From Bryopsis sp. KO-2023 (Eukaryota > Chlorophyta > Ulvophyceae > Bryopsidales > Bryopsidaceae), in NCBI GenBank assembly GCA_030272585.1, contig BSYQ01000014.1, positions 2,108,001 to 2,172,000 of the forward strand: 64,000 bases of DNA, written 5' to 3'. The notes below the pieces were generated by a model, which was not told the origin of the DNA, ran no database searches, and saw only the letters and a program-made list of their open reading frames with translations. Of this stretch, positions 11,411-50,760 are shown piece by piece. The stretch's first letter is position 1. Each line of letters opens with the position of its first letter. A program made the position numbers and the translations under genes.

Positions 11411-12335
11411 TCACTTCCTGCCAGGGGGAGCCGTCAATTGCCTCCCGGTATTGTCAAGAAGATTCTCGACATATTTGGCGGATTTGGGCAGGCCTGTGTT
11501 GATGAGCAACTTCCTCACTGCGCACAAAAGAACCCCATCACTTCAGCACTTCTTGAACAAATGGTCAAAAGACACATCAGGCCCCAGCTCGATCACTTAC
11601 ACAGGCCAGTGGCCGCCCCAGCGTAGGTCCTGTGTGGTGCGACGTCGCTGCCTTCACCTGCGCACAACAGATTTATTTATCGTGATTCCCGCTCTTCGAG
11701 TCGTGACTGTGCATGTGAATTGTGGGCAATGAATCAATGATAGGAAGAAGAATGGCGTCCCCCCTTCTGGAATTTCTCTGCCGCAGTTGGCGAAGCCGTG
11801 ACTGTCAAAAGGAGCTTTTATGGCAACTAGGGGTACTTTTACGTTCACCACCAACACAGTACGCGGAACGGCAAATCAGAGAGAGAGAGAGACAGAGAGA
11901 GCTCAGGCCCGGGATTCCGACACTTCTTTTTGAACAGCAGCCTTCCAGCCTTCAGCGCCGGTTCACTAGCAAAGGGGCTGGTTCCGTCGTCTCACCAAGA
12001 ATCTCGCCCGAACGCGCGTCCAACGAGTGCGCTGCCACGACGAGAGAGATCATCAAAACTACCAGGAGCTTCGTCATTTTTGTTGTTATCGGAGTCTTAA
12101 CGAGTGGGCAGACTTACTTCTGGGAAGACGACAGAGAGCAAACAATAAGTACCACTGAAGCGCTTACTGTAAATGATACACGTAAATGTCACACGGTCTG
12201 ATACATGCCAGCAACCACCAGTTTGCACTTGGGCGCGCGAAAGAATGCAGCGTCGGGTGGCTAGGCGGCTTCATTACGATTCAGTCCCCACCCCGGCTGA
12301 CTGTGATAGAGGCGAAACCGTCCAAACTGGCTATG
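11405..12335 (-). repeat. Tandem segmental duplication, left unit
   Basis: Matches 13105-14145 in direct orientation and covers the whole peptide gene plus about 250 bp of upstream sequence. The part from exon 3 to exon 2 differs at only a few positions. Intron 1, the signal exon and the upstream region differ much more and carry a different length of GA repeat (11878-11891 here). Confidence 0.85.
11411..12077 (-). CDS. Secreted cationic peptide precursor, copy A
   Basis: Three exons on the minus strand: 12077-11996, 11657-11601, 11517-11411, giving 81 aa. Exon 1 encodes a clear signal peptide (MTKLLVVLMISLVVAAHS) and ends one base into a codon before GTGAGA. Exon 2 is a short Gly/Ala spacer (GEGSDVAPHRTYAGAATGL). 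Exon 3 encodes a 36-residue basic peptide starting LRKLLINTGLPKSAKYVENL and ending APPGRK. Both junctions are phase 1, the same architecture as the 23.1 and 30.0 kb genes. Near-identical copy B lies 1.7 kb to the right in the same orientation. The end GRK would fit C-terminal processing but this is inference. The family is not one I recognise; an antimicrobial or signalling peptide is possible. Confidence 0.6.
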
Positions 12336-13104
12336 CACCCTTGAGTAACAACCAACGCCGCCTTTTTACACTCTCGTGACGATCCCCCCATTCATTCATT
12401 TCCAGGCATACTGTCACGTGACTTGCTGTCGTGTTTCTGGAAGTGGAAATGAGTGGTGAGAGTAAAAGGTGGTCAACTGTGAAGGGAAATGGGATCATAT
12501 TTATGTGGAACTGGCAAACGAATATTGTAACAACCTTGGTACACGACCCTGGTTCCGGAAGTAATCAACTGCCAACTAAACCAACCATGACCACAAAAAC
12601 TCCCCGCCTTCCTCAGCCACATTTTCTACCGAATGAGGCGTCAATAAGCATTTGTATATATATGACAGTACGTACTGTGAGATTTCACACCAGTTTTGAC
12701 CGTGCTTGTCCATTTTGCCTAACCCTCAAGTTTAATAAAACCTACCTCTTTATGCATCTCACTGGTACAGCGACTGTGATCCCATTACAATGGAATGGAT
12801 GTTGCGAAGTGTGGAGTAACAACTTGTGGCCATCCGAAAAATCATGCCTTGCTGGCCAAATCAGAGCAGGGCAGGTTGTATGTTTCCAAAATATTTTGAC
12901 AGTTCATATTCAAACACATTTACAACCGAGTTCCTGACTCGCAAAAAAGTTGCCTCCTGCCTCCTCCAGCTGGAGACCAAAAAGGTAGTTCTGAAGAATC
13001 CGTTGGAAACCCCGCTGGGTCGTTCCACGACCATCCAACAACGCAAAACCAAAGTCTTGTTTTTGGTTCAGTGGGGGTGTGCTAAAAATTTTCATCAGTT
13101 GTGA
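12336..13104. other. Spacer between the two duplicated peptide genes
   Basis: About 770 bp unique to this interval. A 168-codon plus-strand frame (12431-12937) has no domain, no splice partner and ordinary composition, so it is not called. Confidence 0.4.
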
Positions 13105-13617
13105 AACCCAATCACTTCCTGCCTGGGGGAGCCGTCAATTGCCTCCCGGTATTGTCAAGAAGATTCTCGACATATTTGGCGGATTTGGGCAGGCCTGTGT
13201 TGATGAGCAACTTCCTCACTGCGCACAAAAGAACCCCATAGCTTCAGCACTTCTTGAACAAATGGTCAAAAGACACATCAGGCCCCAGCTCGATCACTTA
13301 CACAGGCCAGTGGCCGCCCCGGCGTAGCTCCTGTGTGGTGCGACGTCGCTGCCTTCACCTGCGCACAACAGATTTGTTTATCGTGATTCCCACTCTTCGA
13401 GTCGTGACTGTGCCTGTGAATTGTGCGCAACGAATCAATGATAGGAAGAAAAAAAAACGCGTCTCCCCTCTTGGGATGTCTCTGCCGTAGTTGATAAAGC
13501 CTCCACTGTCGCCCTGTTAGAGAATTCGCGACTGATCACCTCCTTTCATGAAAGGAGGTTTTACAGTAACTAGTGGCACTTTCACATCCACCACTATCAC
13601 AGTACGCATAACGACAA

Positions 13618-13665
<48 letters not shown>

Positions 13666-14145
13666 GCTCAGGCCCGGGATTCCGACACTTCTTTTTGAAC
13701 AGCAGCCTTCCAGCCTTCAACGCCGGTTCACTAGCAAAGGGGCTGATTCCGTCGTCTCACCAAGAATCTCGCCCGAACGCGCGTGTGCTGCCACGACGAG
13801 AGAGATCATCACAACTGCCAGGAGCTTCATCATTGTTGTCGCTGTCAAAGTCTCAACGAGTGGGCGAACAGACAGAGAGCAACACTCAACGCTGGCAGGA
13901 CATAACTGACGGAAGATTGGGTCGAATAAGTACCAATCGAGTGCTTACTGTACAGGATGCATGTAAATGTTATGAGATCTGAAAAACACGTCACGAACCC
14001 CCCAGTTTTTACATGGGCTGCCCCTGTGCGTTCCTGGGGGACTGAATTACGCGAAGAGGTACAGCGTCCGGCCGCTGGGCGGCTTCATTGCCATTCAGTC
14101 CCCACCGCGGCTCACTGTGATTGACGCGAAATCGTCGAAACTGGG
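13105..14145 (-). repeat. Tandem segmental duplication, right unit
   Basis: Direct-repeat partner of 11405-12335. It has 37 bases of uninterrupted GA repeat at 13621-13657 where the left unit has a short one. The promoter-side ends (about 12180-12335 and 13985-14145) remain recognisably similar, for example the shared GGCGGCTTCATT and CAGTCCCCACC segments. Confidence 0.8.
13112..13833 (-). CDS. Secreted cationic peptide precursor, copy B
   Basis: Exons on the minus strand: 13833-13761, 13358-13302, 13218-13112, giving 78 aa. The signal exon (MMKLLAVVMISLVVAAHARS) has three codons fewer than copy A and several replacements. The spacer differs by one residue (Ser for Thr). The terminal exon differs from copy A at one silent base only, so the encoded mature peptide is identical. 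Reading phases and splice sites match copy A. The long GA repeat lies in intron 1. Identity of the mature exon with a divergent signal exon could mean selection, recent gene conversion, or both. Confidence 0.6.
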
Positions 14146-14908
14146 CGTTGCAGTTCCGAAGTTCAAAAAAAAAAACACCATCTCCATACGCACACGCCTT
14201 CGAATCAAACCGTCAAAAAGTCGTTCTGTTGGAGGATCTTGGAAACAACGGACGTGTCCTTTCGAGTTTTCTCGCACGATTTTATCAGTAGATTTTCATG
14301 GGTGAAGAGGGTGGTGTGAGAAACCCAGGCGTTCATTCCGTCGATTCCGTCCGACACTTCATTTCCGAACTCGGCTCCAGTAGTGGCTTTCTGGCCGATG
14401 TTTGGACTTGTTAAGCGGTGGGGGAACCCGCTGCTTGTTGCTGGAATCAAAAAGCAGCGTGTCCGACGGGATACAAAGTGGCTTCCTTTTTTTCAACGAG
14501 GTGCCGAAACCTTTCGCCTATTGATTCCCAAGGGGACACCTGCTTTTTAGGCGGGGTCCAGGTGGGGTAGAGGAGTGTAGGGTTTGTTTGTTTGTAGGGT
14601 AACGCCTCCATCTTGGAATTTGTCCGAATTCGCATTATTCCCCACGTCGTTCGCTGCGACGGTGTCGTTTTGGCGTTGACGATTAGGGCAAAAGGTGGTA
14701 TTCAAGAGGAAAGAAAAAACACCCACTGCAAACAAGGCGCGTCAATATTGATTAATCCATCAGGGCGGACTGGGGTGACTGGTTGCCCAGCCAAATACCG
14801 GTACGCATGCGTTACAACCCAACCCAGAACGAACAGAGTGTTGCACAAGCTCCTATTCTTACAACCCATTCCCGAAACCCCATCCTAACCCAACCTCACA
14901 GCCCACAT
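14146..14908. other. Intergenic, 5' of copy B and 3' of the coiled-coil gene
   Basis: Roughly 760 bp with several short open frames on both strands and no supported gene. The first part probably contains the upstream region of peptide copy B. Confidence 0.4.
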
Positions 14909-17900
14909 TCAATGTGACGGCCTCACAGAATCAAAATCTGGAGCTTCGTTGGAGACCAGAGTGGTGTCGAGGGCGCCGATTTCCACGCTTTCTCCGCCAG
15001 GGCAAGAATCGCTTTCCAAAGCTGACACTTTTTGCTTCATTTGAGAAAACTGCGATCGAAGGACGTCCAGTTGGATCTGGAGCACACACCAAGACGATAC
15101 TTCATTGACAAAAACTGGTCAAATCGCCACAGATGACTTGCTACTGACAGATATTGGCTGTGTGATATTCGAAGGGGCCTTCCCTTGACTTGTATGAATG
15201 GTGTCGTATAATGTGGGGTAGGTTTACAAAATAGCAATTCTAGTTTACAGATAGATAGATGCCTGGGTGGGGCGGCTTTGTAAAAGAAGCGGTGAAAAAA
15301 ATATGTGTTGTAGCTCTTTCTCGTATTCAAGTTTCAGACCAAAAAATTAATTGAGCCTATTTTATAGAAAAGCTGGTGATAGTGGCACTGACTTGAGCTG
15401 CCTCCAGTTGGCATCGCATTTTCTTTTGGCAATTGTCCAATTCCATCCGGCTGCTTTCTTGACAGGCAATCAACTGCCACCCCCCCCAAAAAAAGCATGC
15501 AACAGACATTAACCAATGGAAAATACGGAATTTTCATTTTTTTTCCTCCAGGAAAAAATGCAAAAAAATTTAATGCATTTTTGGAATCCTGCTTTTAGCT
15601 AGGAAAACGAATTTGAAACTTGAAGTCGTGGGCACTTGTTCTTCGTTAAGAGAGGCTTCCAAGTGAAATACCTGTATCAAGTTTCTTGTGGTTAATTGCC
15701 AAAACAAACACGTTTTGCCAACCCCCTCCCCCCCCCAAAAAAAAAGAGCGTTCTAGAAACACACCTTTTCCTCATGTCTGATTTCAAGGTCCTCCAATTT
15801 CTGCCTCATTTCCTTTATAATTGTAGCTTTGGATTCCACAGCACGTGCTGCTATTTCAGAACATTCCCTAGCTTCATTTGCGTCGGATTCATTAGCAGCT
15901 GCCTCAATCGTTTTCGATTCAAGCGCCCTTCAAGGGGACCAAAATAAAATTAAATAAAAAATTAAATAAAAAATAAAAGCCATAAATTCAAAAGCAGAAC
16001 TCCCAAGGTTCAATTGACAAGGCTTGACTTCCATCAGATCAACAATTTGAACAGAAAATTATAAAGCAAACTGGTGAACCAATTGTTTTTCCCCCCACCG
16101 ATTAAGCTCTTGGATTTGGTCAGACATGCGTTTCAGCATGAAATCTTTTTCGTCCAACAGGCCTTCCACACAGACTAATCGACTCTTGGCGCTCCTGACG
16201 AAATCCTCTTTTTCGGCCAAATTCCCTGAAATCTGGTTGAAAGTGGTGCGATATTCGTTTCTTTCTGCAGTCACGAATTCCAGCTCTCTCTGAATCGCCT
16301 CCAGACGTGCATCAGAATTTCTCAATCCTTTTTCCCAGCGCTCGATGACCATCTTTTCCCAAACACATAAAATATAATCAGTGAATCAATTTTGTACAGA
16401 TCATAGTTGAAGGAAAACGAAATCCGAAACAGAAAAAGGAAAAAAAAGATAGTTCTTGGAAATTAAAGAGGAAAAAAAAAAAGGAAAGTGCTGTCTCCAC
16501 CTGCTGTTCGGAGCTTTGCATGACTAAATGTTGATTTCTGGCTTCGCATTCCCTTAACAGCATGTCCAAAGATTGGGCTCTTTCCTCCATTTTCATGCAC
16601 TCGGCATCTACGATTTAAAAAATATAAAAAAATATAAAAAAAAACCTGTTTACCTCAGACTCACAAAGCTTGGCCTGAGGAATTTTGGAATTGCTTCATG
16701 CGCAAGAGAAGAAGAAGAAAAGAAAAAATTGCGCAGCGCACAAGCTGCATTTGGCTTTCGCTCTGATATTTTCTTTGCATTAAAAAAACAAAAAGGGAAA
16801 AGGAGAAAGAGAAAAGGAAAAAATTTATCTAAAAATATAAAAATGAAAATCTTCAAAATCTTCAAAAAAGAGATTTAAGTCTATCTATCTATTTCTAGCA
16901 GAAATCACGATATATTTTTTCTGCATCTTTTTTAGGACTTGTGGGCAATATACAGTGAACTGGATGAAGTGACACTGACCTTTTGTATTGATAGCTTCGT
17001 CCAGTTTCGCCCTGGACTCTGACCAATGGCTCTTTATCGAGCTTAAGTCTTCCGACAGCTGAAAAACCTAATCCAGTCAACCCCCCCCAAGAAATAAAAA
17101 ATAAAAATGAATTAACCAATCTCTTCAAAAATTCCTATGAACAAATTAGCAATTGGGTCATTTGTACAATGCACAGTTTTTTCGATAATTTCACATCTGA
17201 TGTTACAAAGGGAAGAAAAAAAGAAAAGCCACTCGGATAACAAACTCCTAACTGAAAATGAATTAACAGAGGAAAAAGGAAAAAATCAGAAGAAGGGGGG
17301 GAGGGGGGGGGGGGCTGCTGGAGTAAAAAATAATCGATGCATTGGTTGGCCCCTAATACCTGCTCTCTTGCAGCGCTGATTTCAGCATCGAGTTCGACTT
17401 TTTCGCCTTGCATGTGGAGCCCCACTCTTTTCAGTTCAGCCACTTCTTCTTGGAGATTCTGGCATTTTTCCTCCAACGCGTGCTTCTCTTTTCGCACTTT
17501 TTCGATCTCTTGCTGCCCTGATTCAAGTCCTTTTTGAAATGCAGCGTCTGAGGCGCTTTTGACCGCGTCTGTCATAGCAACGCTGCAACACTGACACTCC
17601 AAATTTTCAATAGAGCCCGAAAAAAACAAAAGCAAAGCGACAAAAAACTAAATTAAAGAAACCAGAAATTGAAATGTAGAGGAATGCAAGGCGATTTTGA
17701 TGTTTAAAAAACAAAGCTTCAGTCGATCGATGATTTCTTTTTTATGTATGTTCTTCCCAATTTTGAATTTGGGTTTTTCTGTTGGTTAAAAAACAGACTG
17801 GGCTGAAAGCTTTTGTGCAAAGAAGTGACCTCGCCCCCATTTTTTTTTACTTTTCTTTTTTTTTTCCATTTTATTTTTTTTTGGAAGTGAACGGAATTCC

Positions 17901-23127: not shown

Positions 23128-23920
23128 TCAGCCTGTGGTGAAACGGAGCTTTCTACCAGTGCCTGCGCCTTCGCCTGCGTTGAAACGGAGCTTTCTGTCG
23201 GACCCAGCCAGCCTTCTGCCATTGTTATTGTTGAAACGGAGCTTTCTGATGGATCCGGACGGTTTCACTGCGTGAAGACGAACCCTCAGTCATTCTCGTT
23301 TCAATCCACACACCGATGTTCAACACAAATTCAGCCCAATGGCCACTTACACACGCCAACAGCCGATCCATCGTTCCCAATAACGCCTTGATCTTCTAAT
23401 CCATGGCCCTTCCCTGAGCACCACAGAACTCATGGTCAGTACTTCTCCGCTGTCTGGCGTTTCAAACATGAGCTTCCACAACCCGGGACTTCTCCGCTGC
23501 AAGTATCCACCGTTTCACAGAGAAGCGACCTTGTCGGGGGAAAAACGTGGGGACGCGCAGTGAAGAGCGAGTGATCAACTTTCACACAGTAACACTTCGA
23601 GGCCATCAACGCTCCTCTCTGCTGGCAAAGCGTTGCGATGTGCAAGCTTTCCAGCCCCAGCAAAGACGCGACCCTCTCAAGTCCTATGCCGGAAACGATG
23701 GCGCCGTCAAAATGTCTCACCAACTATCTCTGGGGTGGCTTGCGCCGCGACGAAGAGGGCGAACAGTGCAACTGCTACGAGCTTGGTCATCGTGGTTGGA
23801 ATATCAAACGTTTGTCGTTTCTTCAGCAAAAAAACCCAAAGCTTTTTGAAAAAAAAGCAAATTTGTAAAGCGAAGCGGCGGACAACAGAAAAACAGTCAT
23901 GGGTGGGATGACGCCACTAC
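22930..23920. repeat. Inverted duplication, left arm (RKLRF peptide locus)
   Basis: Matches 29945-30960 in inverted orientation, from sequence downstream of the last exon to beyond the signal exon. Shared upstream marks include GACGTCATCCCA-like and GTCCGCCGCTTCGCT segments. Confidence 0.75.
23128..23790 (-). CDS. Secreted RKLRF-repeat peptide precursor, three motifs
   Basis: Minus-strand exons: 23790-23721, 23413-23351, 23267-23128, giving 90 aa. Exon 1 is a signal peptide (MTKLVAVALFALFVAAQATP) ending in phase 1 before GTGAGA. Exon 2 is an acidic-neutral spacer (GKGHGLEDQGVIGNDGSAVG). Exon 3 carries three exact RKLRF motifs, in GSIRKLRFNNNN, GRRLAGSDRKLRFNAG and GTGRKLRFTTG, then TGA. Basic pairs around the motifs could be processing sites. 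The homologue at 30049-30686 has identical exon sizes for exons 1 and 2, and the phases agree. Another frame of exon 3 is also open (ESSVS repeats) but does not splice to the signal exon in phase. Function unknown; a cationic defence peptide or a multi-copy peptide precursor are the candidate readings. Confidence 0.6.
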
Positions 23921-26619: not shown

Positions 26620-26658
<39 letters not shown>

Positions 26659-27677: not shown

Positions 27678-29371
27678 ATGATCCGAAGCGGCCGGATTCT
27701 TTGCAGCAACTTTTCCTGGACTTGGAATCTTTCAGGTGAGCTGAATGTTAGGGGACCCCCCCTTTTTTTTGAAAAAATAAGAAAAAGAAAGTTTTCTTAG
27801 TTTCATTTCGAAAATAAAATTTGAAGTTCACCATTGGATGGTGTCAAAAAACACAAATTTTTTTCGTTGGAAAGAATCGAGTTTTTCAGGATTCTCTCAC
27901 TGAAAGACAGAAACACAGATTTAAAAAAAAAAACAAAAAACAGAGAGGAGGATTTGCATGAATATGCAAATAAACAGGGCACTTGATCTTTTTTTCAAAG
28001 AAAAAACTCTCAAAAACACTCCAGGAAGAAAAAAAAAATCATCGAAATTTTGTTCCGAAAATTCATCAGTTCTCTCTAACGTCTCACCTGGAAAAATCCC
28101 CATCACAAACCTTTTTTTTTTCGTTTTCCTTTTTTTTCCCAGGCAGGAGTCCCTTTGGTTCCGAAGCTTCGACTGCCAAACAAATCGCCGCCGTTGAAAG
28201 CTGCCCCCCCTCTCTGAAAGCCGCTTTGGATTCCGTGGGGGTGAGCCCCCTGGTTTGGAAACAGAAATGGAGCATCAAGGAAAAGAGGTACGGCCATTTA
28301 CACACATCCCAATCCAATCTAGAACACAATTTGAAGCTTCTGGAAAAATGGGGGATGGAAATGAAGGACCGAAAGAGAACCGCGCTCTCCACCTACACCA
28401 TGGTCCGTTCTCGGCCGAAAATCATCGAGGAAAAGCTGGAATGGATAAAAAACACCCTGGATTTGAACGAAAAGGAGGTAATGAAAATCGTCCGGGTTTA
28501 CCCGAACATTCTGCAATACTCCATGGGGGAAAACGTGGGGCCGTTTCTGGAATCGTTCTTGGCGGGGGGGTTCTCCAGGCAGCACGTCAAAGCGGTGGTG
28601 TTAAAAATGCCGAGGATGCTGGGTTACGGATCGAAATTCAGGTCGATGGAGTCTTTTTTCGTAAAAAAAGTGGGCCTGGAAAAGGCAGATGTGTTGAGGT
28701 TCGTCATGGCGTTTCCGAATGCTTTCACCTATTCGCTGGAGCAGAATATGTTTCCCTCGATCGAGAAATACTTTGAGCTGGGGTTGACTAAATCGGATAT
28801 TCTGAGGTTTATCCGGGAAGCCCCGTCGCTGGTGGCTGGGCGTGACTACGAGAAAACCATCCAGTGCAAAATCGATTGGCTGATGGACGATTTGGGGTTT
28901 GACAAGGAGCGTGCCCTCAACGTTTTGAGACTGTATCCGAGAACTTTTTTTGCCAACCTCGAGGTGTGGAGGGAAACCTTCGATTATCTGACTTCTTTGG
29001 GGAATTTCGCGAAGCCGGAGGCGATCCAATTTCTGGAGTCCAACATGGTGCTTCTGGGGTTGAATGTCGAGGGGTTGAAGGAAAAGGTGGCTTTCGCGAA
29101 ACAAACGCTGGGGAAAAGTGTGGAGGATATCGTGGAATTTCCGCAGTATTTGGGTACCCCCTTCGAAAACGTGTTGTGTATGAGAGTGGCGTTTTTGAGG
29201 CACAAAGGGATTCGATTCCAGCACATGGGTTTGCATGAATTCTGTGAAAAGCAAACGGAGGTTTTCTTCGAGAGGTTCGACGAGACGGAGTTTTTGGACG
29301 TGATCGACAAATGGAAAAAATTGTCGAGAACCGAAAAAGCCCATGCTGTGGAGAATGGGTTCCCATGGTGA
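27678..29371 (+). CDS. mTERF-domain protein, long form
   Basis: Two exons, 27678-27735 and 28143-29371, joined in phase 1 give 428 aa. The short first exon encodes an organelle-targeting start (MIRSGRILCSNFSWTWNLS). The body contains about eight mTERF units with the usual Pro near each unit end: VMKIVRVYPNILQYSMGENV, VKAVVLKMPRMLGYG, VLRFVMAFPNAFTYSLEQNM, ILRFIREAPSLVAG, ALNVLRLYPRTFFANLEVWR, AIQFLESNMVLLGLNVEGLK, VEDIVEFPQYLGTPFE. The end (RVAFLRHKGIRF) also fits. Such proteins act in plastids or mitochondria on organelle nucleic acids. Pairing with NDUFS4 favours the mitochondrion but does not prove it. Confidence 0.9.
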
Positions 29372-30048: not shown

Positions 30049-30960
30049 ATGGCCAAGCTCGTAGCAGTTTTACTGATCGCCTTCTTCGTCGTGGCGCAAG
30101 CCACCCCAGAGATAGTTGGTGAGACATCTTGACGGCGCCGTCGTTTCCGGCATAGGACTTGAGAGGGTCGCGTCTTTGTTGGGGCTGGAAAGCTTGTACT
30201 TTTCCACACTTTGCTAGCAAAGCGGCGTTGGCTTTGGAGTGTCGCTCCGCGGTTATTTCACTGACGGAATGTTGATTACCCTTTCTTCCCTGCGCATCCC
30301 CACGGACGCGACAAAGCAACGTTGCCTGTCCATGAAACGGTGGATACTTGCAGCAGAGACCTCCGAAACAAATCTATCGTGGGGATAAGTTCATGTTTTA
30401 AACGCCAGACAGCGGAGAAGTACTGACCATGAGTTCTGTGGTGCTCAGGGAAGGGCCATGGATTAGAAGATCAAGGCGTTATTGGGAACGATGGATCGCC
30501 TGTTGGCGTGTGTAAGTAGCCATTGGGCTGAATTTGTGTTGAACATCGGTGTGTGGATTGAAACGAGAATGACTGAGGGTTCGTCTTCACGCAGTGAAAC
30601 TGTCCGGATCCATCAGAAAGCTCCGTTTCTTCGGCAAGGGCAGAAGGCTGGCTGGAGCCGACAGAAAGCTCCGTTTCAACGTTTAACATGGTTAACGATG
30701 TTAAAAGGCTGCCTGGATCCGCCGGAAGGCGCCCTCCGAATGGCAGATGATTGGGCGGGGAAGAAAAAGTCGGGGGGAAACAACAGATAAACCGATCCGG
30801 TCTAATCTATTCTCACTGGGAAATTTTCAACAAAATTTGACTGTTGTGTCTCGTGGGACGCACATTGTGCGTCGCACAACACAACGACACACCCGTTTTA
30901 AGAAAATTCTTAGGCACCCCCTACAGGGAGCAACAACACTTTGAAAAAAATCTGCCATGA
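29945..30960. repeat. Inverted duplication, right arm (RKLRF peptide locus)
   Basis: Partner of 22930-23920 in opposite orientation. A further partial copy of the 3' flank and last exon follows at about 30935-31160 in the orientation of the 23.1 kb copy. Confidence 0.75.
30049..30686 (+). CDS. Secreted RKLRF-repeat peptide precursor, two motifs
   Basis: Exons 30049-30118, 30449-30511, 30595-30686, giving 74 aa. The signal exon (MAKLVAVLLIAFFVVAQATP) ends in phase 1 before GTGAGA, as at 23.1 kb. The spacer exon is GKGHGLEDQGVIGNDGSPVG. The last exon has two RKLRF motifs, in SGSIRKLRFFGKGRR and LAGADRKLRFNV, ending at TAA. Compared with the 23.1 kb copy it ends after the second motif, and the linker NNNN is replaced by FGK, creating RFFGKGRR. 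The mature part is strongly basic with almost no acidic residues. Inverted relative to the 23.1 kb copy. Function unknown. Confidence 0.6.
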
Positions 30961-31412: not shown

Positions 31413-31519
31413 CACAATCCGAATTCTCAACAATTTCACAGACAACTTTCATAAACTTCTGAAAAAAGACATGGAAAGTGAAAGTTCAGAACCTGGCAAC
31501 GAAAAGAAAGAAAGAAAGA

Positions 31520-35400: not shown

Positions 35401-35733
35401 CTACACTATAGTATAGCTATACACAAAAGTCCACCTGATGGGGGGGGACTCGGGCACTCTTCTCTTAAAGACTTTTTTGATTGCTCTCCCCAGCCTCTTG
35501 AGACTGGGGAGGCAAGAGCACCCGAGGCCCACCTCGTCACCGCAATCCTGTGAAAACTACACAAGAAATCTGAGCATTTACTTTTCTTCCACGACAGTCC
35601 ACGAAAAAAGTATTCATGCAGTCCAACATGGAAGGATATATTTTCAACAAAGAACCGCGACGCATGGATATCCACGCGAAGGTTTGTCGACAGCTTACCT
35701 CGTTGAAGCGGAAAGCGGTCATTTCTGCGGTGC
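35401..35733 (-). CDS. Amphipathic Lys/Arg-helix peptide, 3' exons
   Basis: Two minus-strand exons, 35733-35699 (phase 1 entry) and 35547-35401, ending at TAG. The first reads TAEMTAFRFNE, the second DCGDEVGLGCSCLPSLKRLG, then RAIKKVFKRRVPESPP. The stretch SLKRLGRAIKKVFKRR forms a strongly basic amphipathic helix, typical in pattern of linear antimicrobial peptides. The plus-strand locus at 41883-42417 is homologous in exon sequence, splice sites and frame, and Lys is often replaced by Arg rather than by unrelated residues, which supports this reading frame. I found no signal exon between 35734 and the mobile element at 36007, so the gene may be disrupted or its first exon may lie farther away. 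Confidence 0.5.
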
Positions 35734-36006
35734 CTGCAAAGTTTCAGAGCTGGAAAACTTGAGACAGGAAATTCAAGAAAGAAGTTCGCTTTTTGTGGGT
35801 TTACGACTTTTTTTCGGTCACGGGATCCTTGGACGACCGACTCTTGCTGGTTTTTGTATCTGACGTGGTCACACTTGTGAGGCGGGGGGGGGGGGGGGCG
35901 CGGTGACAGTATCGTGTGAGAGTGTCTCGGCAAGTTTCGTGTTGAGCATCACGACGGCGCGCAGAAAGGAAAACGTTAGAAAGATATGAGCTCAAACACA
36001 TACTTA
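35734..36006. other. Upstream flank of the helix-peptide exons
   Basis: A poly-G/C run lies at 35886-35899. The minus-strand frame here is Pro-rich but not hydrophobic, so it does not provide a signal peptide. Confidence 0.4.
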
Positions 36007-36871
36007 CTCTGTCCGAATTTAACTGTCCACTTATGTTTGGGGTTACAGTTCACGAATGAGACCTCCAATTGATGTGAAATTTTGTGGCCAACATCTCTGA
36101 TACACGTAGATGAAGCCTACAAAATTTCAGATCCATTGGTGTAGAGGCTGCGACGCAGTGACTCCGAAACCAGAAACGAAGCAAAACCGCGATTTTCACC
36201 TTCCTGTGAACGTTTTGACACGTCAAACGTTCATCGTTTGCCACAAATTTTTGTGAACACATTCTTTAGATGTTCTGTGGCGAGCTCACAAAATTTCGTC
36301 GTAATTGAACCAGTGAGCAACGCACGATGTCGTCGTTCAGTAAATCGTGACGACTATAAAACCGAGGAAAGTCGACCTCTGAAACCGAAAATAGCGGCGC
36401 AACGCGCGAACTCCACCTCGACCTCGCAAACGTCATGAACGCAACTCAAGAGACCTTTGCGCGCCAGTTCGCTCGAAAATAGGAGCGAAAGTGACCAAGC
36501 TGCCTAGAAAATGGGATTATGATACGGAATGCCAAGCGCATTACACGAGAGGCCAGGTGGAATTTTCAGAGCAAATTTTGGGGATACACTATACGAAGTC
36601 TATTATATTGCGTTGCTTTATAACAGTATCTTACAATTTTGAATCAATTTTAGTATGCAAATTGTAAAAGTCGTCGAAGTGAAAATCCAGTTTTTGCTTC
36701 GTTTCTGGTTTCGGAGTCACTGCATCGCAGCCTCTACACCAATGGATCTGAAATTTTGTGGGTTTCATCTACGTGTATCAGAGATGTTGGCCACAAAATT
36801 TCACATCAATTGGAGGTCTCATTTGTGAACTGTAACCCCAAACATAAGTGGACAGTTAAATTCGGACGGAG
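36007..36871. mobile_element. Mariner/Stowaway-like non-autonomous element (MITE)
   Basis: Left arm 36007-36204 and right arm about 36677-36871 are inverted repeats of about 195 bp with roughly 90 percent identity. The ends read CTCYGTCCGAATTTAACTG and are flanked by TA on both sides (36005-36006, 36872-36873), as expected for TA-targeting Tc1/mariner relatives. The roughly 470-bp interior has no transposase-sized frame, so movement would need a transposase elsewhere. Confidence 0.82.
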
Positions 36872-37704
36872 TAAGTATATATTTTGCTGCAGTAAACAAT
36901 TAATTTTGTTTTTTCAATGGTTTTCCATCCACTGTTCTCGATGAAAGGGGAAAAAAAATGCGAAAATGTGCCTCTGTATCGGCGGCTTGATCGTCCGTTC
37001 GTTGGAGGAACATCAGTTTGTTTGTGTGTTTGTTTTGTGTTTGTTTTGTGTGTGGAGAGACGAAAATAAATCATGTTTTTCTTATTTCTTCACTCCATCA
37101 TGGTATTTCGTCCTTTTTATGGTTCTATTTCAATTGGGCAGAGGTGATTTTCTTTTCCAGAAAGGAGGTCACCTTTCTACACAAAAAGTTACGACATAAT
37201 TTTGGCAAGAAAACCTGCTGAGAAATTATACATAAAACCATTGATTACAAGCCAGATCAATACAGAAGTGAACTGCTTGCATTGGCAGTCTCTGCGCCTT
37301 ATTCAGAGTCCTAAAATCATCCATTATTCTGAATCATTAAAAAAAAAACCTGCAATGGATGCCATGAATACGTTTCACGATAAATCATCCAACACATCAA
37401 ACCAATAAAAAAAAATCCTGCTTCATATCTTCTTTTCTTTTTTCTTTAGGCACAGGATATCACATCAAAATTTCTTTTCTTTATTCACACAGAACCCATA
37501 TTTTCTCTCATTGTATTTCCATTTATGCCATTTATTCCTGAAAAAACCCACATTTTTTTTTTCTTTTTGCAATCAAACAAAAAAAATTGCACTTTTTCTT
37601 TCTTTTTCCCCCCCTTCGAAACCTGACTCTCACCAGACTGAAAAGAGAGACGGACCAAAAAAAACAAAACATCACGAATTTGCTGTACAAAATGTTCAAA
37701 AAAT
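36872..37704. other. Intergenic / 3' flank
   Basis: AT-rich. It contains GTTTGT repeats at 37015-37055 and the 3' UTR of the Cys-rich gene at its right end. No gene supported. Confidence 0.4.
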
Positions 37705-39741
37705 TCAGTTGAGGAAATCTGCGAGAGTGAGAAGCTTCCTTTTGTTGCAACCAACAGTCGCACCGGCATCACCAGCTAAGCCGATGATAATCCCTTCACC
37801 ATTGACCTTGGTTCCAGAATTTATCTCAGAGGTGCCGGTCGTGATGCACTCTCCATCGGGGCCCAAGATGGCTGTGGCCATAACGTCGGCACGAATGTAA
37901 CCAATGCCATAACCAGAGGCACCATCTGACAGTACAACATCGTTATTTAGAGTAATGGATTTGAATTTGGTTCGAACCTACAGCTACCGAGAAAGTGCAA
38001 GCACACAATGAACATCGAACAATGAAGATGGTTATTTTGGACCTGAAAGTGGCTTCGAAAAAAGGATACGAAACCACATTTGTTCATCTCTTGAACAATT
38101 ATAAATGTACAATATATGTGTATGTATGTATGTATATATGTAATAGTTGTTTGCTTTCCGACATCGACTATTAGGAGTCGGAAAACAGTCTTACCGGCAC
38201 ACTCTCCAAGAGCATTGAGGTCACCAAAGGTCTCTCCGAAAGTACCTTCACCAAATGTGGTGACAGAAGTGTCGATGTTTCCGTTGATTTTGACAAAGCA
38301 CTTTCCACCTCTGGCCAACACCTTGACCATCACCCATCCAGAGAGCTGTGCAGTTGTCTGCCCTTGTGGAGGCTTGATGGCTGTACATGTCACAATACAG
38401 ACATCATGGCATGAAAAACCAATTATTTTCATTCCATCTGATCACCTGGCAGACTCATTTGGAGCAATACACCCAATGTGAGATGAAAATTCATTTCATT
38501 CAGAAACAAGGCATAGTTAAAGTGTGCATATTTTGGAGGGGTTTGTCGGAACCATCTGTGCACATTTCAAGGGGGTATTTCAAATAGACATGATGATCTT
38601 CAATTCGACTTACAATCGCCAGGCTTGCGGCACCTACACACCAACAAACGACATCGTTAGTTGACTAATATGTAATCTCTTTAAACAAGGAATCAAAGCA
38701 GCAAACCCTATGGCAGAGGTAGCCAAACCAGGTAGTGGGAAAAAACAAGCCAAGGAAGAAATCCTGGTCATTGTTTCTAGCCAGTAAAGAGAGAAGGATG
38801 TACGACAGAGGGTCGCTGGTAAAATCAACACATAAGTCTCAAATAAACCACGTACATTTTTCCAGCAGCACAGGTCAGACCCCGAATACAGCGATCTCTG
38901 CAGCAGGAAAGCCCATCGGTACCGCATCGACCCCTCCTCTTGATGGGCAAACATCTGTGGAGCAGAACATACATCAAAAACGGCCATAATGAAAGCAAAC
39001 TCAATTCACACTCACACATAGGAAGTGAATGCATTCTGCGCAGAGGTGCACAATAAGAAACAAGTGCTCAGGACAAGTTCCTGGACTGATGTGAGGCCAG
39101 TCTCACCTCTTGGCCATTCCCACCCAGTCACGATCTCCCATGTTCAAACATCTGAAACCATAATTACATTGAGAATTGGCACAGCAGCCCTGCTTGAAGC
39201 CTCCGCAACCTGTCCCCAAGTCATCAAAAAATATTCAAAGACAATTGTCGCTTGCAAGCGAAAAACACTGAGCCGTCACTTCATGGTGTTCGCGATACAA
39301 TGTATGTCTCAGAACCGGAAATGCCGAGGTGTCGTGCGCTGCACCCAACCCAATCGGGTCTAGCAAAGATATTGCACTCAGAGTGGATCCACTTCACACA
39401 AAACACACTGTTGAAACGATTCCTGTCTGGAGTGGATCCAGTCTGGACAACTGCGCACAGCCGATCGCGCGCGCAACATCGGAGGAATCAAGTTGGCCAT
39501 TAGCAAGCCGCCAGAGGCGATCCGCCGATACAGATCGAACCCGAGCACGGAGAAACAAACGTAGATACAGCCGCTTCTCACCCCCCCTCGACCGCGAAGG
39601 TCGCCTTCTTGGGCTCTGTGGAAACCTACGGCGAGTTGGGAATCTCCTCGCACCGCTGTCATCATCGCTGCCTTCGTCATCATCGCCGGCCGCCACGATC
39701 GAAAACAGCAAGAAAAGCGCTAGAATCTGGACGAACTTCAT
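37705..39741 (-). CDS. Secreted protein with two Cys-rich (knottin-like) modules
   Basis: Minus-strand exons: 39741-39582, 39209-39107, 39035-39018, 38954-38856, 38633-38614, 38380-38195, then 37977-37705. All phases close up to 38195. Joining to the last exon needs a further piece of length 2 mod 3, and 38052-38021 (32 nt) would fit, but its donor is weak. Exon 1 is a signal peptide (MKFVQILALFLLFSIVAAG), an acidic patch and an Arg/Pro tail, ending in phase 1 with G like the small peptide genes. Module 1 is GCGGFKQGCCANSQCNYGFR plus C; module 2 is RCGTDGLSCCRDRCIRGLTC plus AAGKMC. Both have C-x6-CC-x3/4-C-x5-C spacing, as in cystine-knot folds. The C-terminal 150 or so residues look beta-rich (TTFGEGTFGETFGDL; DGASGYGIGYIRADVMATAI). 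Function unknown. Confidence 0.62.
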
Positions 39742-40102: not shown

Positions 40103-40574
40103 TCAGGTCGCTTTACCTCCTCCTCTTCCGCCCGAACCCCCGCTTCCACCTCGACCTCCCGCTCCACCAAACCCACCACCACCATCACCACCTCCTCCAC
40201 CACCACCATCACCACCTCCTCCTCCTCCACCTCCGCCCCCCGATCCACCTCGCCCACCAGCTCCGCCGCCACCGCCGCCACCAGAACCCCCTCGACCACC
40301 GCCTCCTCCTCCTCCTCTGCCACCCCGAGCAGCAAGAAGATCGCGCTTCACTGCAAGAATTCCATGAGTTTGTTACCGCACGGTGCCAGACAATTGGAAC
40401 AACGTCGCGAGAAGAACCTCCCCTTACTCTGTGGACGCTATCTATCGGATCCGATATTAAAACCTCCGGAGGTTTTAATGGCTGCATACCCACGGAGTTA
40501 GCTTCGACCTCATGCGCCGCAGCGACCGCCAGGCTGACCAGCATGAAAATACCCACCGCTTTGAACATTTTCAA
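40103..40574 (-). CDS. Secreted glycine-rich protein 1
   Basis: Exons 40574-40428 and 40345-40103, joined in phase 0, give 129 aa. The signal peptide is MKMFKAVGIFMLVSLAVAAA, followed by HEVEANSVGMQPLKPPEVL and then a Gly-rich domain of about 70 residues with spaced Arg and Ser (GGRGGSGGGG units), two GD steps and one GFGGAGGRGG. It ends GGRGGGKAT. The acceptor used (CAGTGAAG before CGC) is chosen because the stronger site four bases upstream leads to an immediate stop. Gly-rich secreted proteins are known as cell-wall components and as antimicrobial peptides; nothing here separates these roles. Confidence 0.6.
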
Positions 40575-41882: not shown

Positions 41883-42417
41883 CAGAAATGAGCACATTCC
41901 AAAGCAACAAGGTGAGCTATCGACAAGGATGGAAACCTTTCTAGAGGGGCTTCTGAAACCTGACGTAAATATCCGTGCGTCTTGGGGTTTTTGCCGAGTT
42001 TTGACGACGGCACGTAAAAACCTCGTCTCCACACGCTTGGAACGCCTACTGAAAAAGATAGCGCCGTCAGTGTAATCTTGAGGGCGAGTGAGTGTTGATG
42101 TGTGTGAAGCTTTACGCAAGAAGTGGACAAAGATATCCTTGCATGTCATATTGCATGGATGTTGTTTTGTTGGGCACTTTGCAGGAGGATGCTTAGGATT
42201 GTTGTGTTGTTCATAGGACTGCGGTGACGGGGTGGGCCTGGGGCGCTCCTGCTTTCCCGGCCTGAAGAGGATCGGGAGAGCAATCAGGAGAGCCTTCAGG
42301 AGGCGAGCCCCCAGGTCACCCCCGTCAGACATGGCGACAGTGGGCTCGACCCACTCATCATTCTCCCACCGCCATCACCATCTATACCATCTGCACCACC
42401 CCCACCAGGTGGATTAA
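41883..42417 (+). CDS. Amphipathic Arg-helix peptide with His-rich tail, 3' exons
   Basis: Exons 41883-41911 (phase 1 entry) and 42217-42417, ending at TAA. The first reads AEMSTFQSNK. The second reads DCGDGVGLGRSCFPGLKRIG, then RAIRRAFRRRAPRSPP, and ends in a His-rich tail (SHRHHHLYHLHHPHQVD). It is the inverted homologue of 35401-35733, sharing the acceptor-proximal DCGD, the helix, and the sequence just past the first donor (RAGCTRTCGACAA). Lys in one copy is Arg in the other across the helix. The His cluster could bind metal. A longer first exon from 41857 is possible. No signal exon was found, so this may be an incomplete or dispersed gene. Confidence 0.5.
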
Positions 42418-46096: not shown

Positions 46097-49000
46097 GGGG
46101 CTGTTTTTTTTCTTTTTCTTTTTTTTGTACTAGGTTTTGTGAGTGCATGTGGGGCATTAGGCCCTGGTCGTTGGTGGGCCTCCCAGTTTTTTCCTCGCCA
46201 CGATCTCGCCCAGGGGGGTTTCGGGAGGTTTACCCTCTGGGAAATAGAAAACAAAAATTGTAAAATATTCAGTATTACGTGTCTCTTTTCGGGGGGAGGG
46301 AAAAAACTTATCTTTTTTGCATTGGTATCAAACGTTCCATTTTACATGGTGCACTCACCCTGTTTTGAAAGCCAATCTGGGGAGCAGTGGCGGACCATCC
46401 AGAGAAGACATCATGGTGCTGAAACGAAGATGCCTGAAGATCTAATGGATAAAATCCAGGTCATTGCACCTGCAGCTGATCCACCCTCACTCCACCTCAG
46501 AAGAAACAAAAAAAGCTTTTGGATCTGATTCCAGAGCAAATTATTCCCAATTAGAAAGGGTTTGCTTGTCATTATGCAACCAAAAAACGAAACTGCTGAA
46601 AAAAAAGAGAGAAGAAACCTCACAGAAAAGAAACTTTATGCCGCCCGTAAAAGCAGTAGAATTTTTTTTTCCACCCACCATCACTACCACTGTTTGTTCT
46701 CTTTTTTGAATGTGTCCACATATCTGTTCATACATATAAGTTCTCAGTTCTTTATTTATTTATTTTTGCCGTGCCATTTCGATTTCTTCTCTTTCATTCA
46801 GATTTTTCTATCAAAAAGACACTTGTTTACAGAATGAATGATATGAATGTCTACCCATGAAGGGTGGGAACATGTCTAAATGCCACATCCATCCACATCC
46901 TCCCCGCCATTCATGATGTGATCGCAACACCAGGCCGCCAACTCCTGGTCCGATCGCTTGCAGGCGATCCACGCGATCCGCCATTCTTACTGGAAATCTG
47001 TGCAGGCGAAAGACACAAGCGGACTCCTTCTCGGCCGACGTGCTCGACCCTATCATCCAAATGTTTGGCAAAACAGAGAGTCGGAAAAAGACTAGCAATC
47101 GAGTCGGAGACTTTTTGATCACATTGTGATGATGTGACACTCTTCGTTCGCTGATGGTGCCTCTGATCGCGTGCGCCAGATCGTTTCAAAAGAAACTGGG
47201 CGTCGTATCGATCAAGATCAACAGCGTCCACACGCTTCGTTCATTCTGTGAAGACGGCCGGCTACCTCCCTGGAGGTCGCCTGCGAGTCAGGGGTATCTG
47301 GTCGAGTCGCGATTTGTCTTAGTGAGGGATTCCTCCGCTCTGTCATCGCTCACAGTAGCACACCGCCGCCGTATTGCACCAAAAAAAAATGGAAAGTACC
47401 CGCTATTGAAGGTGTGGAGGGCTGAGTTTCACTGCCTCAATTGGCAGACACCGTCCCTTCATCCCTATGTTCCAAAAAGAATAAAAATAGTCAATCGACA
47501 GTGGACGAAAATAAACACAGGGAAACAGCAGGTGAACAATACTTGCATCCCTCGATCCGGGGAAAAAAAATCAATTCCCTCCCCAATTTTTTTTACTCGA
47601 AGATTAGCTTGTTTCTTTCTTGTTTTTCCATTCTTAGGGATTTCGCTGATTTGTAGGAACACCACATAATCTTTTGAAAATGCTTGTTGAGAAATCAATC
47701 AATTAATCCATCAAAGATTAAATTCGCTTTCTACCAGGTACTGAAACAAACCCATGTTTGTTTCATTCATGTGGTCAAAGTCCTAAGAAAATTCTTGAAA
47801 GAAGAAGAGGGTGCATTGATTTCGGATCGGGCAGCCGATATAAGAAGCAGCTTGGCCTTTTCTGGATCTTCTTTTTAGAACGAGTGGGTTTAACATTCAG
47901 TTGTAATGAACCACATCAAACTCAATCTATATTGCATGTCAGACCCCAATAATTTTGCTAATTCCGAGTATAACTCGAAAGAAGAATTCAAGTATAAGTG
48001 TGCTGACCTCAATCCGTTTCTGAATCTCTCCAGCCCGACCCAGCGCTGTGTATCGAATCAGACAGCCGTGGAACGATCAAGATCACAGTTTCCAGGTTTC
48101 CGAAAACTCTTCAATATTTCTGTTCTTTTTTATATCCTATTTTTGGCCCCTTATGAATTTGAGTACTATTTCCTTCATATAGGATTTTTTTGCTACAGAA
48201 TTTAAATGAAAATTGGAGCAATGAAAAATATTTCAGTACATAAATAAATAATAAGAACGTGTAGCTGCTGAAAAAATAACTTAACAATAATTATCAATTG
48301 GTTTTCTTATTGTTTTCCTTAGCAAACGGCAGGGTTTCATCGTAAATTCATTGAGGCTGATATGATGTGTCATTGCACTGACCCCCTCAATTTTTATATA
48401 TATATTTGTCCAGCTGTCGAAATCTGGTCCTTTCTTTGAAATATTACTTGATTTCCTAAAAACACTCGAAGACAAGCATTTTCTGGTTTTTTTTGCAACT
48501 TCGGCAGAGAATAGGCTGCCCCCTTTTGCAGCCATGGACAATTGGGGGCAATTCCCTGCTTGGTCCTACTCCCAAGACTTCATTCTGTCGAACCCAGCGC
48601 AAATTGCTAATCTTTCAATTTGCGTTTTTTCAATTTGCGCTGGGTTCGACAGAATGAAGTCTTGGGAGTAGGACCAAGCCAGAAAAAAAAAAACAAGCAG
48701 CTTGCTTAGGATCTGGAGAGAGAGAGAGGAGAATTTATGGAGCGATTGAACACCGAGGGGCAAAAGGGCGGGGTGGACTGGTGAAAAACCGTGTTATGAA
48801 TCATACAGTGTGTGTTTTTGTGGGCCATTGTGGCCCCCAAATCGACAGAATTGATCCCCCGCTTCAATTCCAGCAGCAACTGCTTTTTCAAAATTTTGTC
48901 AGCAATTGTCAAGCTGAATCCACCAGAACAAGCACGCACACCGACACACACACACATATTTTTCCGACTCCGAATGCATCGGTGTACCAGATCCCAGTGG

Positions 49001-49809
49001 GGTGGAACAAGGGAAAATTCACTTTTCTTCTTCTGCTTTCCATTCTGGATCCTTCTTAACAAAATTGCTTGCAGCACAAGTGGGGCAACTACTGAGTTTG
49101 TTGTTGTTGTTGTCTTTCCTTTCCCAATCCCTGAAATTCTTCTCACTTACTTCGCTTTGATGTCTTAATCATTTTTATTGTCTCGAGGATTCTCCAGCTG
49201 ACTTTCCATGCCAGTTCAACTTTTCAGAACTTTTTCAGAGAAGCTTTGCGGCATGCAATCGAATGAATGCATTTGCACAGCTATGACTTGTTCAGTCTGA
49301 ACAACTCGAGTTATGAAGTGTCATTTCCTCAGAGATACAGCTGTGTGTTTGAGACGACTCTAATATTTTCACAACTCATCCCATTTTAAGCGTTATGCCG
49401 CATAACAATGCAGCATTGTTGTCCGCCAAAATGTAACTTTTGGCAGTGGCGGAGCTTTGAGCTGGCCGCAGAAGAAAATGTCATGTATTCTAAATCAAAA
49501 AAGCCCGTTTGCAGCCGATTACACATATCCTTGTCGTTACTTCAACCCAACAAACCCCAACAGGGGACACGATCCTGAAAAGCAAAACCTAACTCACTTG
49601 CTGGCATTGTTGCTTCATATTTGTCTCACAAATACATTCAGCATACCATTACTAGAACAAAAAAATATTATTTGGCACTCATGAAAGATATATACAACAT
49701 CCCTGTTCCAAACAAAGACATCTAACTTGAAAGGAGAGCGCCTGAAAATCAGATATTTCATGATTCACGACCTCTCCGTAAATAGTACTGGATTCTGGAG
49801 GTAAGGCTT
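46097..49809. other. Gene-poor 3.7 kb with a GC-rich open segment
   Basis: No gene can be joined here. A 60-codon plus frame at 46344-46529 and an 84-codon minus frame near 48535-48281 are weak possibilities. At 46930-47070 all three plus frames and part of the minus strand are open in locally GC-rich DNA, resembling the exons of the peptide loci. A 171-codon plus frame (47154-47669) runs from this segment into AT-rich DNA and is not supported as protein. Confidence 0.35.
48558..48679. repeat. Perfect 49-bp inverted repeat (foldback)
   Basis: 48558-48606 and 48631-48679 are exact reverse complements, with a 24-base loop that itself repeats CAATTTGCG. No transposon end is recognisable. Perfect arms imply a recent origin. 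Confidence 0.93.
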
Positions 49810-50760
49810 CTAGTCCCATTTGTTGCGACGATTCTTCCACCAGTCGTTTCTCCCGCGGCCACGTCCTCGACGACGTCGTCCGCCGCCACCGCCACCACCA
49901 CCACCACCTCCTCCGCCGCCTCCTCCTCCGCCACCGCCGCCTCCACTGACACTCCCACCGCCGCCTCCGCCTCCACCACCTCCGGAATTGCTGCCGCCTC
50001 CACCACCACCGCCACCACCTCCTCCTCCACCACCGCCTCCGCCTCCGCCTCCTCCACTGACACTCCCACCGCCGCCTCCGCCTCCACCACCTCCAGAATT
50101 GCTGCCGCCTCCTCCGCCACCGCCTCCTCCTCCTCCACCACCACCACCGCCTCCTCCGCCGCCTCCTCCTCCACCACCACCGCCGCCGCCGCCGCCTCCT
50201 CCTCCGCCAGAAGTGCTGCCGCCTCCGCCGCCGCCACCACCACCACCAGAAGTGCTGCCGCCACCGCCACCTCCACCTCCGCCACCACCTCCGCCTCCGC
50301 CTCCTCCACCACCTCCGCCGCCTCCTCCTCCACCTCCGCCGCCGCCGCCACCGCCTCCTCCACCACCACCGGCGTCATTACTACCGCCACCACCGCCTCC
50401 ACCACCTCCACCTCCCGAAGTCTGCCATCGGTTGGTGAAAACATTTCCTCCTCCTCCTCCTCCTCCACCACCACCGCCTCCTTGAAGAAGTTTACGCTTC
50501 GATCGGAGTTCGGCAATCTCTGCATCCCAACATAAAAAAAAGCGTGACCCCCCAAATCATGTACCAGACCTGTACGTCCCTTCCTACACCTTTTCATTAA
50601 GTCAACGACCACATGTGGAGAACAAGAACGAGTCTGGAATGGTATTCAGCTTCATAAAAAGCTCAGGACCAAACCGATGTAGCACCGCACCGTCGTTTTC
50701 GGCTGTCACTGCGCATATGGCCAGTGCCACGAGAAGCGTGGCGGCCAAAAGCTTCGTCAT
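49810..50760 (-). CDS. Secreted glycine-rich protein 2
   Basis: Exons 50760-50691 and 50519-49810, joined in phase 1, give 259 aa. The signal peptide is MTKLLAATLLVALAICAVTA; the exon ends with G before GTGCGG. The mature part begins EIAELRSKRKLLQ and is then almost all Gly over about 210 residues, broken by NVFTNRWQTS, SND, and repeated STSGGGG, SNSGGGG and SVSGGGG steps. The end is basic and aromatic: RRRRGRGRGRNDWWKNRRNK plus WD. The RG-rich, Trp-containing tail is unlike that of Gly-rich protein 1. The signal exon resembles those of the small cationic peptide genes (M-T-K-L-L/V start). The complementary strand shows a long poly-Pro frame that is an artefact of this composition. Role unknown; cell wall or defence are both possible. 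Confidence 0.62.

What the first reader, a model, noticed from the sequence alone, without database searches (positions are those of the whole stretch)
11411..50760. Clustered family of secreted peptide genes sharing a modular signal exon
Seven loci in 40 kb begin with a similar signal-peptide exon. In six of them (11.4, 13.1, 23.1, 30.0, 37.7, 49.8 kb) it ends in phase 1 with G just before a GTG-type donor, while the downstream exons encode unrelated mature parts: a basic GRK-ending peptide, RKLRF repeats, knottin-like modules and a Gly-rich domain. A conserved leader with swapped or fast-evolving mature exons is a hallmark of diversifying secreted peptide systems. That gene structure is seen in the sequence; a role in defence or signalling is inference.
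Basis: partly seen in the sequence, partly recalled or inferred. Interest (0 to 1): 0.88.

Follow-up and report, generated by a model that had tools for sequence, protein, structure and literature searches.

The report
Green-alga secreted peptide gene family
A giant single-celled green seaweed carries a small family of genes that share the same secretion tag but differ in the small positively charged peptide behind it, an arrangement best known from animal defence and venom peptides.

Summary
The window is from the siphonous green alga Bryopsis sp. KO-2023. All seven proposed signal exons have a phase-1 G|GT donor, but only four share a homologous leader (11.4, 13.1, 23.1, 30.0 kb). These belong to one three-exon family: leader exon, short symmetric 1-1 pro exon, and an exon for a cysteine-free cationic peptide. 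I found eight intact members in the 91 Mb assembly (five on this contig, three on two others) and at least four decayed copies; the counts are lower bounds. Leaders recovered by a profile from other contigs, constant junctions and phases, and deposited models (two identical to my chains) support the genes. Similarity falls from leader to pro exon to mature exon. The other three loci look secreted but are not shown to share this leader: a Cys-rich gene with its own paralogs (37.7 kb) and two Gly-rich genes (40.6 kb; 49.8 kb, borderline). Phase-1 introns near signal-peptide cleavage sites are general, so they alone do not show a shared module. Best reading: an orphan birth-and-death family of secreted prepropeptides laid out like cationic antimicrobial precursors. 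Expression, cleavage and function are untested.

The parts
11996..12077 (-). gene A1 (11.4 kb) exon 1: leader MTKLLVVLMISLVVAAHSLDARSGEIL + G, phase-1 donor GGTGAGA
11601..11657 (-). gene A1 exon 2: pro segment GEGSDVAPHRTYAGAATGL, phases 1-1
   Evidence: similar DNA on C1 and C10
11411..11517 (-). gene A1 exon 3: basic segment LRKLLINTGLPKSAKYVENLLDNTGRQLTAPPGRK and stop
13761..13833 (-). gene A2 (13.1 kb) exon 1: leader; used in deposited model BSKO_13564
13302..13358 (-). gene A2 exon 2
13112..13218 (-). gene A2 exon 3
23721..23790 (-). gene B1 (23.1 kb) exon 1: leader MTKLVAVALFALFVAAQATPEIV + G
23351..23413 (-). gene B1 exon 2: pro segment
23128..23267 (-). gene B1 exon 3: three RKLRF repeats; whole chain identical to BSKO_13566
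30049..30118 (+). gene B2 (30.0 kb) exon 1: leader
30449..30511 (+). gene B2 exon 2: pro segment
30595..30686 (+). gene B2 exon 3: two RKLRF repeats; chain contained in BSKO_13569
37705..39741 (-). Cys-rich secreted gene BSKO_13571; leader exon 39654-39741 by the deposited junction; separate family with paralogs BSKO_13614 and BSKO_13615
   Evidence: leader not in the A/B family
40490..40568 (-). signal exon of a Gly-rich gene, phase-1 donor GTATGC; not shown to share the leader
40103..40350 (-). Gly-rich exon of the 40.6 kb gene (junction inferred from splice signals and open frame only)
50691..50760 (-). signal exon of a second Gly-rich gene, phase-1 donor GTGCGG; leader similarity borderline
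49810..50519 (-). Gly-rich exon with RSKRKLLQ near its start and an Arg-rich end (junction inferred only)

Best explanation
Four of the seven loci are members of a small orphan family of three-exon genes for secreted prepropeptides, found so far only in this alga. Exon 1 gives the signal peptide and ends in phase 1; exon 2 is a 19-21 codon, net-negative pro segment bounded by phase-1 introns; exon 3 gives a short cysteine-free peptide, cationic in all eight members, ending in Gly or Gly-Arg/Lys in six and carrying RKLRF repeats in two. The family grows and dies by tandem, inverted and dispersed copying. Most likely the signal is removed on secretion, a protease cuts at basic or RKL sites, and the released cationic peptide acts outside the cell, by analogy with acidic-pro/cationic-mature antimicrobial precursors, perhaps toward the bacteria that live on and in Bryopsis. 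Shown: homology, junctions and phases, dispersal, decay. Inferred: secretion, cleavage, activity.
For: A leader profile trained on the C1/C10 members finds the four window leaders (E 6.6e-14 to 1.1e-6). The pattern for donor 2 + intron 2 + acceptor 2 hits 7 places in 91 Mb, all of them family members; the reversed-pattern control gives 0 forward and 1 reverse. Deposited protein models: 5 returned at E<=10, 2 identical to my chains (BSKO_13566, BSKO_00758), 1 containing one (BSKO_13569), 1 joining the 13.1 kb leader to the 11.4 kb exons 2-3 (BSKO_13564), 1 keeping part of intron 1 (BSKO_11072). Exon 1 is 1 mod 3 and exon 2 is 0 mod 3 in length in 8 of 8, while introns 1 vary freely from 281 to 402 nt. 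Similarity among five representatives of the eight falls from leader (10 of 10 pairs above all 500 shuffles) to exon 2 (6 of 10) to exon 3 (1 of 10, the recent copy pair). Net charge of exon 2 is -1 to -3 in 8 of 8, of exon 3 +2 to +10 in 8 of 8, no cysteine in any. Decayed copies with a shared leader deletion.
Against: No expression data were available. Whole-gene dN/dS in the five recent pairs is 0.45, 0.58, 0.59, 0.99 and 1.74 on few changes, so selection on the protein is not firmly shown. The gap test is weaker than it looks: 5 of 5 exon gaps are multiples of three against 3 of 15 intron gaps, but exon 3 was ended at its stop codon, one gap only reflects different stops and two are the same event, which leaves three distinct events; between types exon 3 has gaps that are not multiples of three. 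With region-wise shuffles leader z-scores drop to 2.0-9.5 and overlap at the low end with those to the three unrelated leaders (up to 2.6). No homolog outside this species was found. Cationic charge alone is weak evidence of antimicrobial action.
Confidence: 0.48

Rival explanations
1. Signalling peptides: the prepropeptides are cut at basic sites to release short peptides, some amidated at C-terminal Gly, that act between cells or gametes, as proposed for Chlamydomonas.
For: RKLRF repeated 3 and 2 times in the 23.1 and 30.0 kb genes resembles multi-copy precursors; [quoted passage not shown]
Against: No Gly follows RF in the repeats; the 30.0 kb and L025 members lack the end; the Cu2_monooxygen loci fetched (4 of 5 matches) looked DBH/MOXD-like by eye rather than a clear amidating enzyme; convertases were not searched for; fast divergence is less usual for a signal.
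Confidence: 0.22
2. Secreted wall or wound-plug components: the basic and Gly-rich secreted proteins of this stretch are extracellular matrix or plug proteins, and the peptide family is part of that coat.
For: Two Gly-rich genes and a Cys-rich gene with signal-like starts lie in the same 40 kb; family member L025 has a Gly/Tyr-rich mature part; Bryopsis is known for wound repair (PMC3252328, search listing and start of abstract only).
Against: Most exon-3 peptides are short and not repetitive; shared location does not show shared function.
Confidence: 0.17
3. The resemblance is only generic: a secreted protein has a hydrophobic N terminus and often a phase-1 G|G junction near the cleavage site, and the loci are unrelated.
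For: Phase-1 excess near signal-peptide cleavage sites is general (PMC1626468, passages). This fits 39.7 and 40.6 kb, and probably 50.76 kb.
Against: For the other four the leader DNA, pro exon, intron-2 length and junctions match members on other contigs.
Confidence: 0.06
4. Decaying or noncoding copies: the loci are remnants of a repeat that happens to carry a leader-like exon.
For: At least four frameshifted copies on the same contig; dN/dS 0.99 and 1.74 in two of five recent pairs.
Against: Eight copies keep three open exons with matching phases; deposited gene models, though how these were made is unknown to me.
Confidence: 0.07

Closest known systems
Myticalins of Mytilus (linear cationic antimicrobial peptides; PMC5577615, 12 of 18 matching passages seen)
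   Same: conserved signal and anionic pro part, divergent cationic mature part without cysteines, frequent Gly-Arg end, multigene family with pseudogenes, a phase-1 intron
   Different: pro part is C-terminal there and N-terminal here; no sequence relation claimed; antimicrobial activity untested here
Conotoxin and frog-skin prepropeptide families (recalled; papers seen only in the search listing)
   Same: conserved signal, less conserved pro, most divergent mature part
   Different: no disulfide framework, only eight intact genes found, no secretory gland
Nodule-specific cysteine-rich peptides of legumes (PMC12461094, search listing and start of abstract only; gene layout recalled)
   Same: conserved leader with variable peptide, in a host that keeps internal bacteria
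   Different: no cysteines here; link to symbionts is only a conjecture
Putative neuropeptide-like precursors of Chlamydomonas (PMC6313938, abstract and section 3.1)
   Different: those came from a rule-based screen of 771 proteins, not one family with a shared leader

Membership tests
A/B leader family defined here | leader exon found by a profile of members on other contigs | tested here: met
   met for 11.4, 13.1, 23.1, 30.0 kb; not met for 39.7 and 40.6 kb; not found by the C1/C10 profile for 50.76 kb, borderline in others
A/B leader family defined here | 57-63 nt exon 2 with phases 1-1 ending TGT|GTAAGT and a third coding exon | tested here: met
   8 of 8 intact members; I saw no such exon in the 40.6 and 50.76 kb genes on reading, without a systematic search
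Cationic antimicrobial peptide precursors | signal, acidic pro segment, cationic mature segment | tested here: met
   charges in 8 of 8; signal by hydropathy only
Cationic antimicrobial peptide precursors | activity against microbes | not testable with these tools
   needs synthetic peptide
[quoted passage not shown]
   6 of 8 members: Gly-(Lys/Arg)n in 4, bare Gly in 2
Amidated (neuro)peptide precursors | amidating enzyme in the genome | tested here: inconclusive
   PF01082 gives 5 matches, 2 over cut-off, none in the 14 control genomes; the four loci fetched look DBH/MOXD-like by eye, the fifth was not fetched
Knottin / cystine-knot peptides | family-level sequence match for BSKO_13571 and paralogs | tested here: not met
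   no Pfam family at E<=1 in BSKO_13571, 13614 or 13615, no PDB sequence for BSKO_13615 at E<=10; fold prediction never ran because the machine was busy

The most novel reading that the evidence does not exclude
A siphonous green alga has evolved its own prepropeptide system, unrelated to animal or land-plant families, in which a standard leader and pro exon deliver rapidly changing cationic peptides, with the mature exon replaced as a unit through matching phase-1 introns, to police its endophytic and surface bacteria.
Probability: 0.15. Interest if true: 0.8.

Novelty: new member of a known kind. Interest (0 to 1): 0.5.

Why it matters
Families with a fixed leader and variable secreted peptide are textbook in animals and legumes (recalled). 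The papers listed by my searches (15 of 37, 12 of 194, 15 of 395) included none on such a family in green algae; the unlisted ones were not seen. A compact family in an alga that can be wounded, regenerated and cultured would let one test whether giant single cells use diversified peptides for defence or signalling. The exon boundaries also give a clean case for asking whether mature parts change by exon replacement or by fast point change.

Tried and rejected
Rejected: that all seven leaders form one family. Rejected as proof of relatedness: the shared phase-1 G|GT donor, which is general to signal peptides. Considered and not claimed: accelerated evolution of exon 3. It differs more than intron 2 in three of five recent pairs (uncorrected p 0.003, 0.007, 0.033) but in no recent pair significantly more than intron 1 (significantly less in 11.4/13.1), and intron 2 itself is unusually alike, which gene conversion or constraint could explain. 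Left open: exon-3 replacement versus divergence; some pairs of exon 3 keep weak similarity (11.4/L003 reached by 2 of 500 shuffles, 11.4/L025 by 6). Dropped rows: 5 of 13 hits of the leader pattern (L006, L008, L009, L010, L018; control 1 and 1) judged chance by their letters; 4 of 8 hits of the 5' UTR pattern (L084-L087; control 4 and 0) showed no signal peptide by eye; one exon-3-like hit on C20 (L027, E 0.36) was looked at and not followed. The 50.76 kb leader found only itself in the genome. No Rfam family at gathering score, and no tRNA by a bacterial-code scan, in the window. For the family members scanned, the best Pfam match is E 0.064, in the leader alone.

Limits: the genome paper of Bryopsis sp. 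KO-2023 was not among the listed papers, so how its gene models were made is unknown to me. The organism name rests on one 100% protein match and further BSKO models on contigs of the same lengths as C14, C1 and C10.
Full report
Source. The window is G000:C14:2108001-2172000 of a 91.1 Mb assembly in 28 contigs. Its mTERF gene at 28145-29368 is 100% identical to BSKO_13568 of Bryopsis sp. KO-2023 on a contig of the same length as C14, so the host is that coenocytic green alga.

Observation. A hydropathy scan finds the seven loci named; no signal-peptide predictor was run. All seven have a phase-1 G|GT donor at codons 18-34 (8 of 26 listed rows, one locus with two ATGs). Among the other 18 rows 3 have one; under a longer donor motif that I chose after seeing the loci, none has. 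But phase-1 introns near the signal-peptide cleavage site are a general property of secreted proteins, attributed to glycine codons or to exon shuffling (PMC1626468, passages), so the junction alone does not make a family.

Which loci are related. Aligning 11.4 and 13.1 kb with loci from C1 and C10 that a DNA search brought in shows a common gene: leader exon, intron 1, a 57-63 nt exon 2 ending TGT|GTAAGT, intron 2, exon 3. The 23.1 and 30.0 kb genes have the same plan; in these seven intron 1 is 281-402 nt and intron 2 is 79-84 nt. A further member, L025 at C14:2056 kb, was found by protein search; its intron 2 is 158 nt and holds a dispersed repeat. A DNA profile of 5' UTR plus leader built only from the three C1/C10 genes finds exactly these four in the window with E 6.6e-14, 7.6e-13, 1.1e-7 and 1.1e-6, the next hit being at E 1. 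The 39.7 and 40.6 kb leaders are not found at E<=10 by any of four part-set profiles; in the profile of all eleven leaders 39.7 kb appears only at E 27 and 40.6 kb not at E<=100. The 50.76 kb leader reaches E 0.0078 in that all-member profile, 0.14 and 0.2 in two part-set profiles, and is absent in the other two. Pairwise z-scores against region-wise shuffles are 2.0-9.5 among six family leaders and -0.2 to 2.6 between these and the three others, so single pairs overlap at the low end and the profile is the stronger test.

Family size. The donor-intron-acceptor pattern of intron 2 occurs at seven places in the assembly, all members; the control gave 0 and 1. Protein searches with the 23.1, L025, 11.4 and L004 chains, DNA searches and two leader patterns add L025 and decayed copies but no other intact gene that I recognised: eight intact, five on C14, two on C10, one on C1. 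Four copies on C14 (L013, L014, L015, L063) share a two-base loss in the leader; L064 has an exon-2-like match and a displaced stretch like the exon-3 region of those copies. These counts are lower bounds, as the tool states.

Are they genes? A profile search of the protein database returned five proteins at E<=10, all from this alga. Two equal my chains letter for letter (23.1 kb = BSKO_13566; L003 = BSKO_00758), BSKO_13569 contains the 30.0 kb chain, BSKO_11072 is L004 with part of intron 1 kept, and BSKO_13564 equals the 13.1 kb leader joined to the 11.4 kb exons 2-3. The last may be a mapping artefact between copies that are 89-99% alike by segment or a real cross-locus splice; I cannot tell. 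Exon 1 and exon 2 keep their length class modulo three in 8 of 8. In five recent pairs all 5 internal exon gaps are multiples of three, against 3 of 15 intron gaps, but exon 3 was ended at its stop codon, one gap (45) only reflects different stops and two are one event, so three distinct events remain; between types exon 3 has gaps that are not multiples of three. dN/dS is 0.4-0.6 for the leader between types; whole-gene values in the five recent pairs are 0.45, 0.58, 0.59, 0.99 and 1.74 on few changes. Protein-level constraint is thus modest or uneven.

Gradient. Against full shuffles, leaders exceed all 500 in 10 of 10 pairs of five representatives (of eight members), exon 2 in 6 of 10, exon 3 in 1 of 10, which is the recent copy pair. 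Full shuffles flatter hydrophobic leaders; the region-wise test above is fairer. Exon 2 is net negative in 8 of 8 and exon 3 net positive (+2 to +10) in 8 of 8; no member has a cysteine. The C-terminus is Gly-(Lys/Arg)n in 4 of 8 and bare Gly in 2 more. RKL recurs in 5 of 8 exon-3 parts, and KRKLL, KRRLL or a variant also in the 49.8 kb Gly-rich gene and in the C-termini of the Cys-rich proteins; this is a post hoc remark that could mark a shared processing site.

The other three loci. The 37.7 kb gene is BSKO_13571 (205 aa as deposited); the search with my 262-aa chain returned it with BSKO_13615, BSKO_13614 and a 146-aa protein from another source. My chain has one more Cys-rich exon than the deposited model, and both BSKO paralogs keep that stretch. 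No Pfam match in the three BSKO proteins at E<=1 and no PDB sequence match for BSKO_13615 at E<=10; 'knottin-like' describes cysteine spacing, not a tested fold. The 40.6 and 49.8 kb genes are Gly-rich with splice junctions inferred from sequence only; the joined frames are open.

Interpretation. The family has the layout of prepropeptides: signal, small acidic pro segment, cationic mature peptide. Closest in design are mussel myticalins (conserved signal and anionic pro part, divergent cationic mature part, Gly-Arg ends, pseudogenes; PMC5577615, passages). [quoted passage not shown] Signalling is the main rival: Chlamydomonas is proposed to make amidated peptides from precursors with the same cleavage rules (PMC6313938, abstract and section 3.1), and 6 of 8 members fit the C-terminal rule. 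My check for an amidating enzyme was inconclusive.

Verdict. Real, not among the papers listed by my searches, of a known kind, smaller than claimed (four of seven loci here, eight intact genes found genome-wide), with function open.

Noticed in passing
window 13833-13761 and 11657-11411: Deposited model BSKO_13564 equals the leader of the 13.1 kb copy joined to exons 2-3 of the 11.4 kb copy, skipping exons 2-3 of the former and the leader of the latter.
   Followed up: partly
L025 intron 2 (C14:2056 kb): About 73 bases of a dispersed repeat sit inside intron 2; 39 of 45 listed matches of that gene in the assembly are this repeat, a lower bound.
   Followed up: no
window 36000-36203 and 36676-36878: Inverted repeat arms, 95.6% alike, like a foldback element.
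   Followed up: no
window 35478-35564 and 42199-42286: Inverted 82% match lying in two similar short ORFs.
   Followed up: no
intron 2 of the A/B family: Intron 2 keeps nearly constant length (79-84 nt in 7 of 8) and is more alike than intron 1 in all six pairs compared, at p<0.05 uncorrected in three.
   Followed up: partly
C14:1.30-1.76 Mb (L013, L014, L015, L063): Four decayed family copies sharing one leader deletion, the first three in longer similar stretches.
   Followed up: partly
window 37705-39741: Deposited BSKO_13571 lacks one Cys-rich exon that its BSKO paralogs keep: alternative splicing or a model error.
   Followed up: no
C12, C9, C8 loci L028-L031: Several multi-exon copper monooxygenase (PF01082) genes that read as DBH/MOXD-like by eye.
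   Followed up: partly
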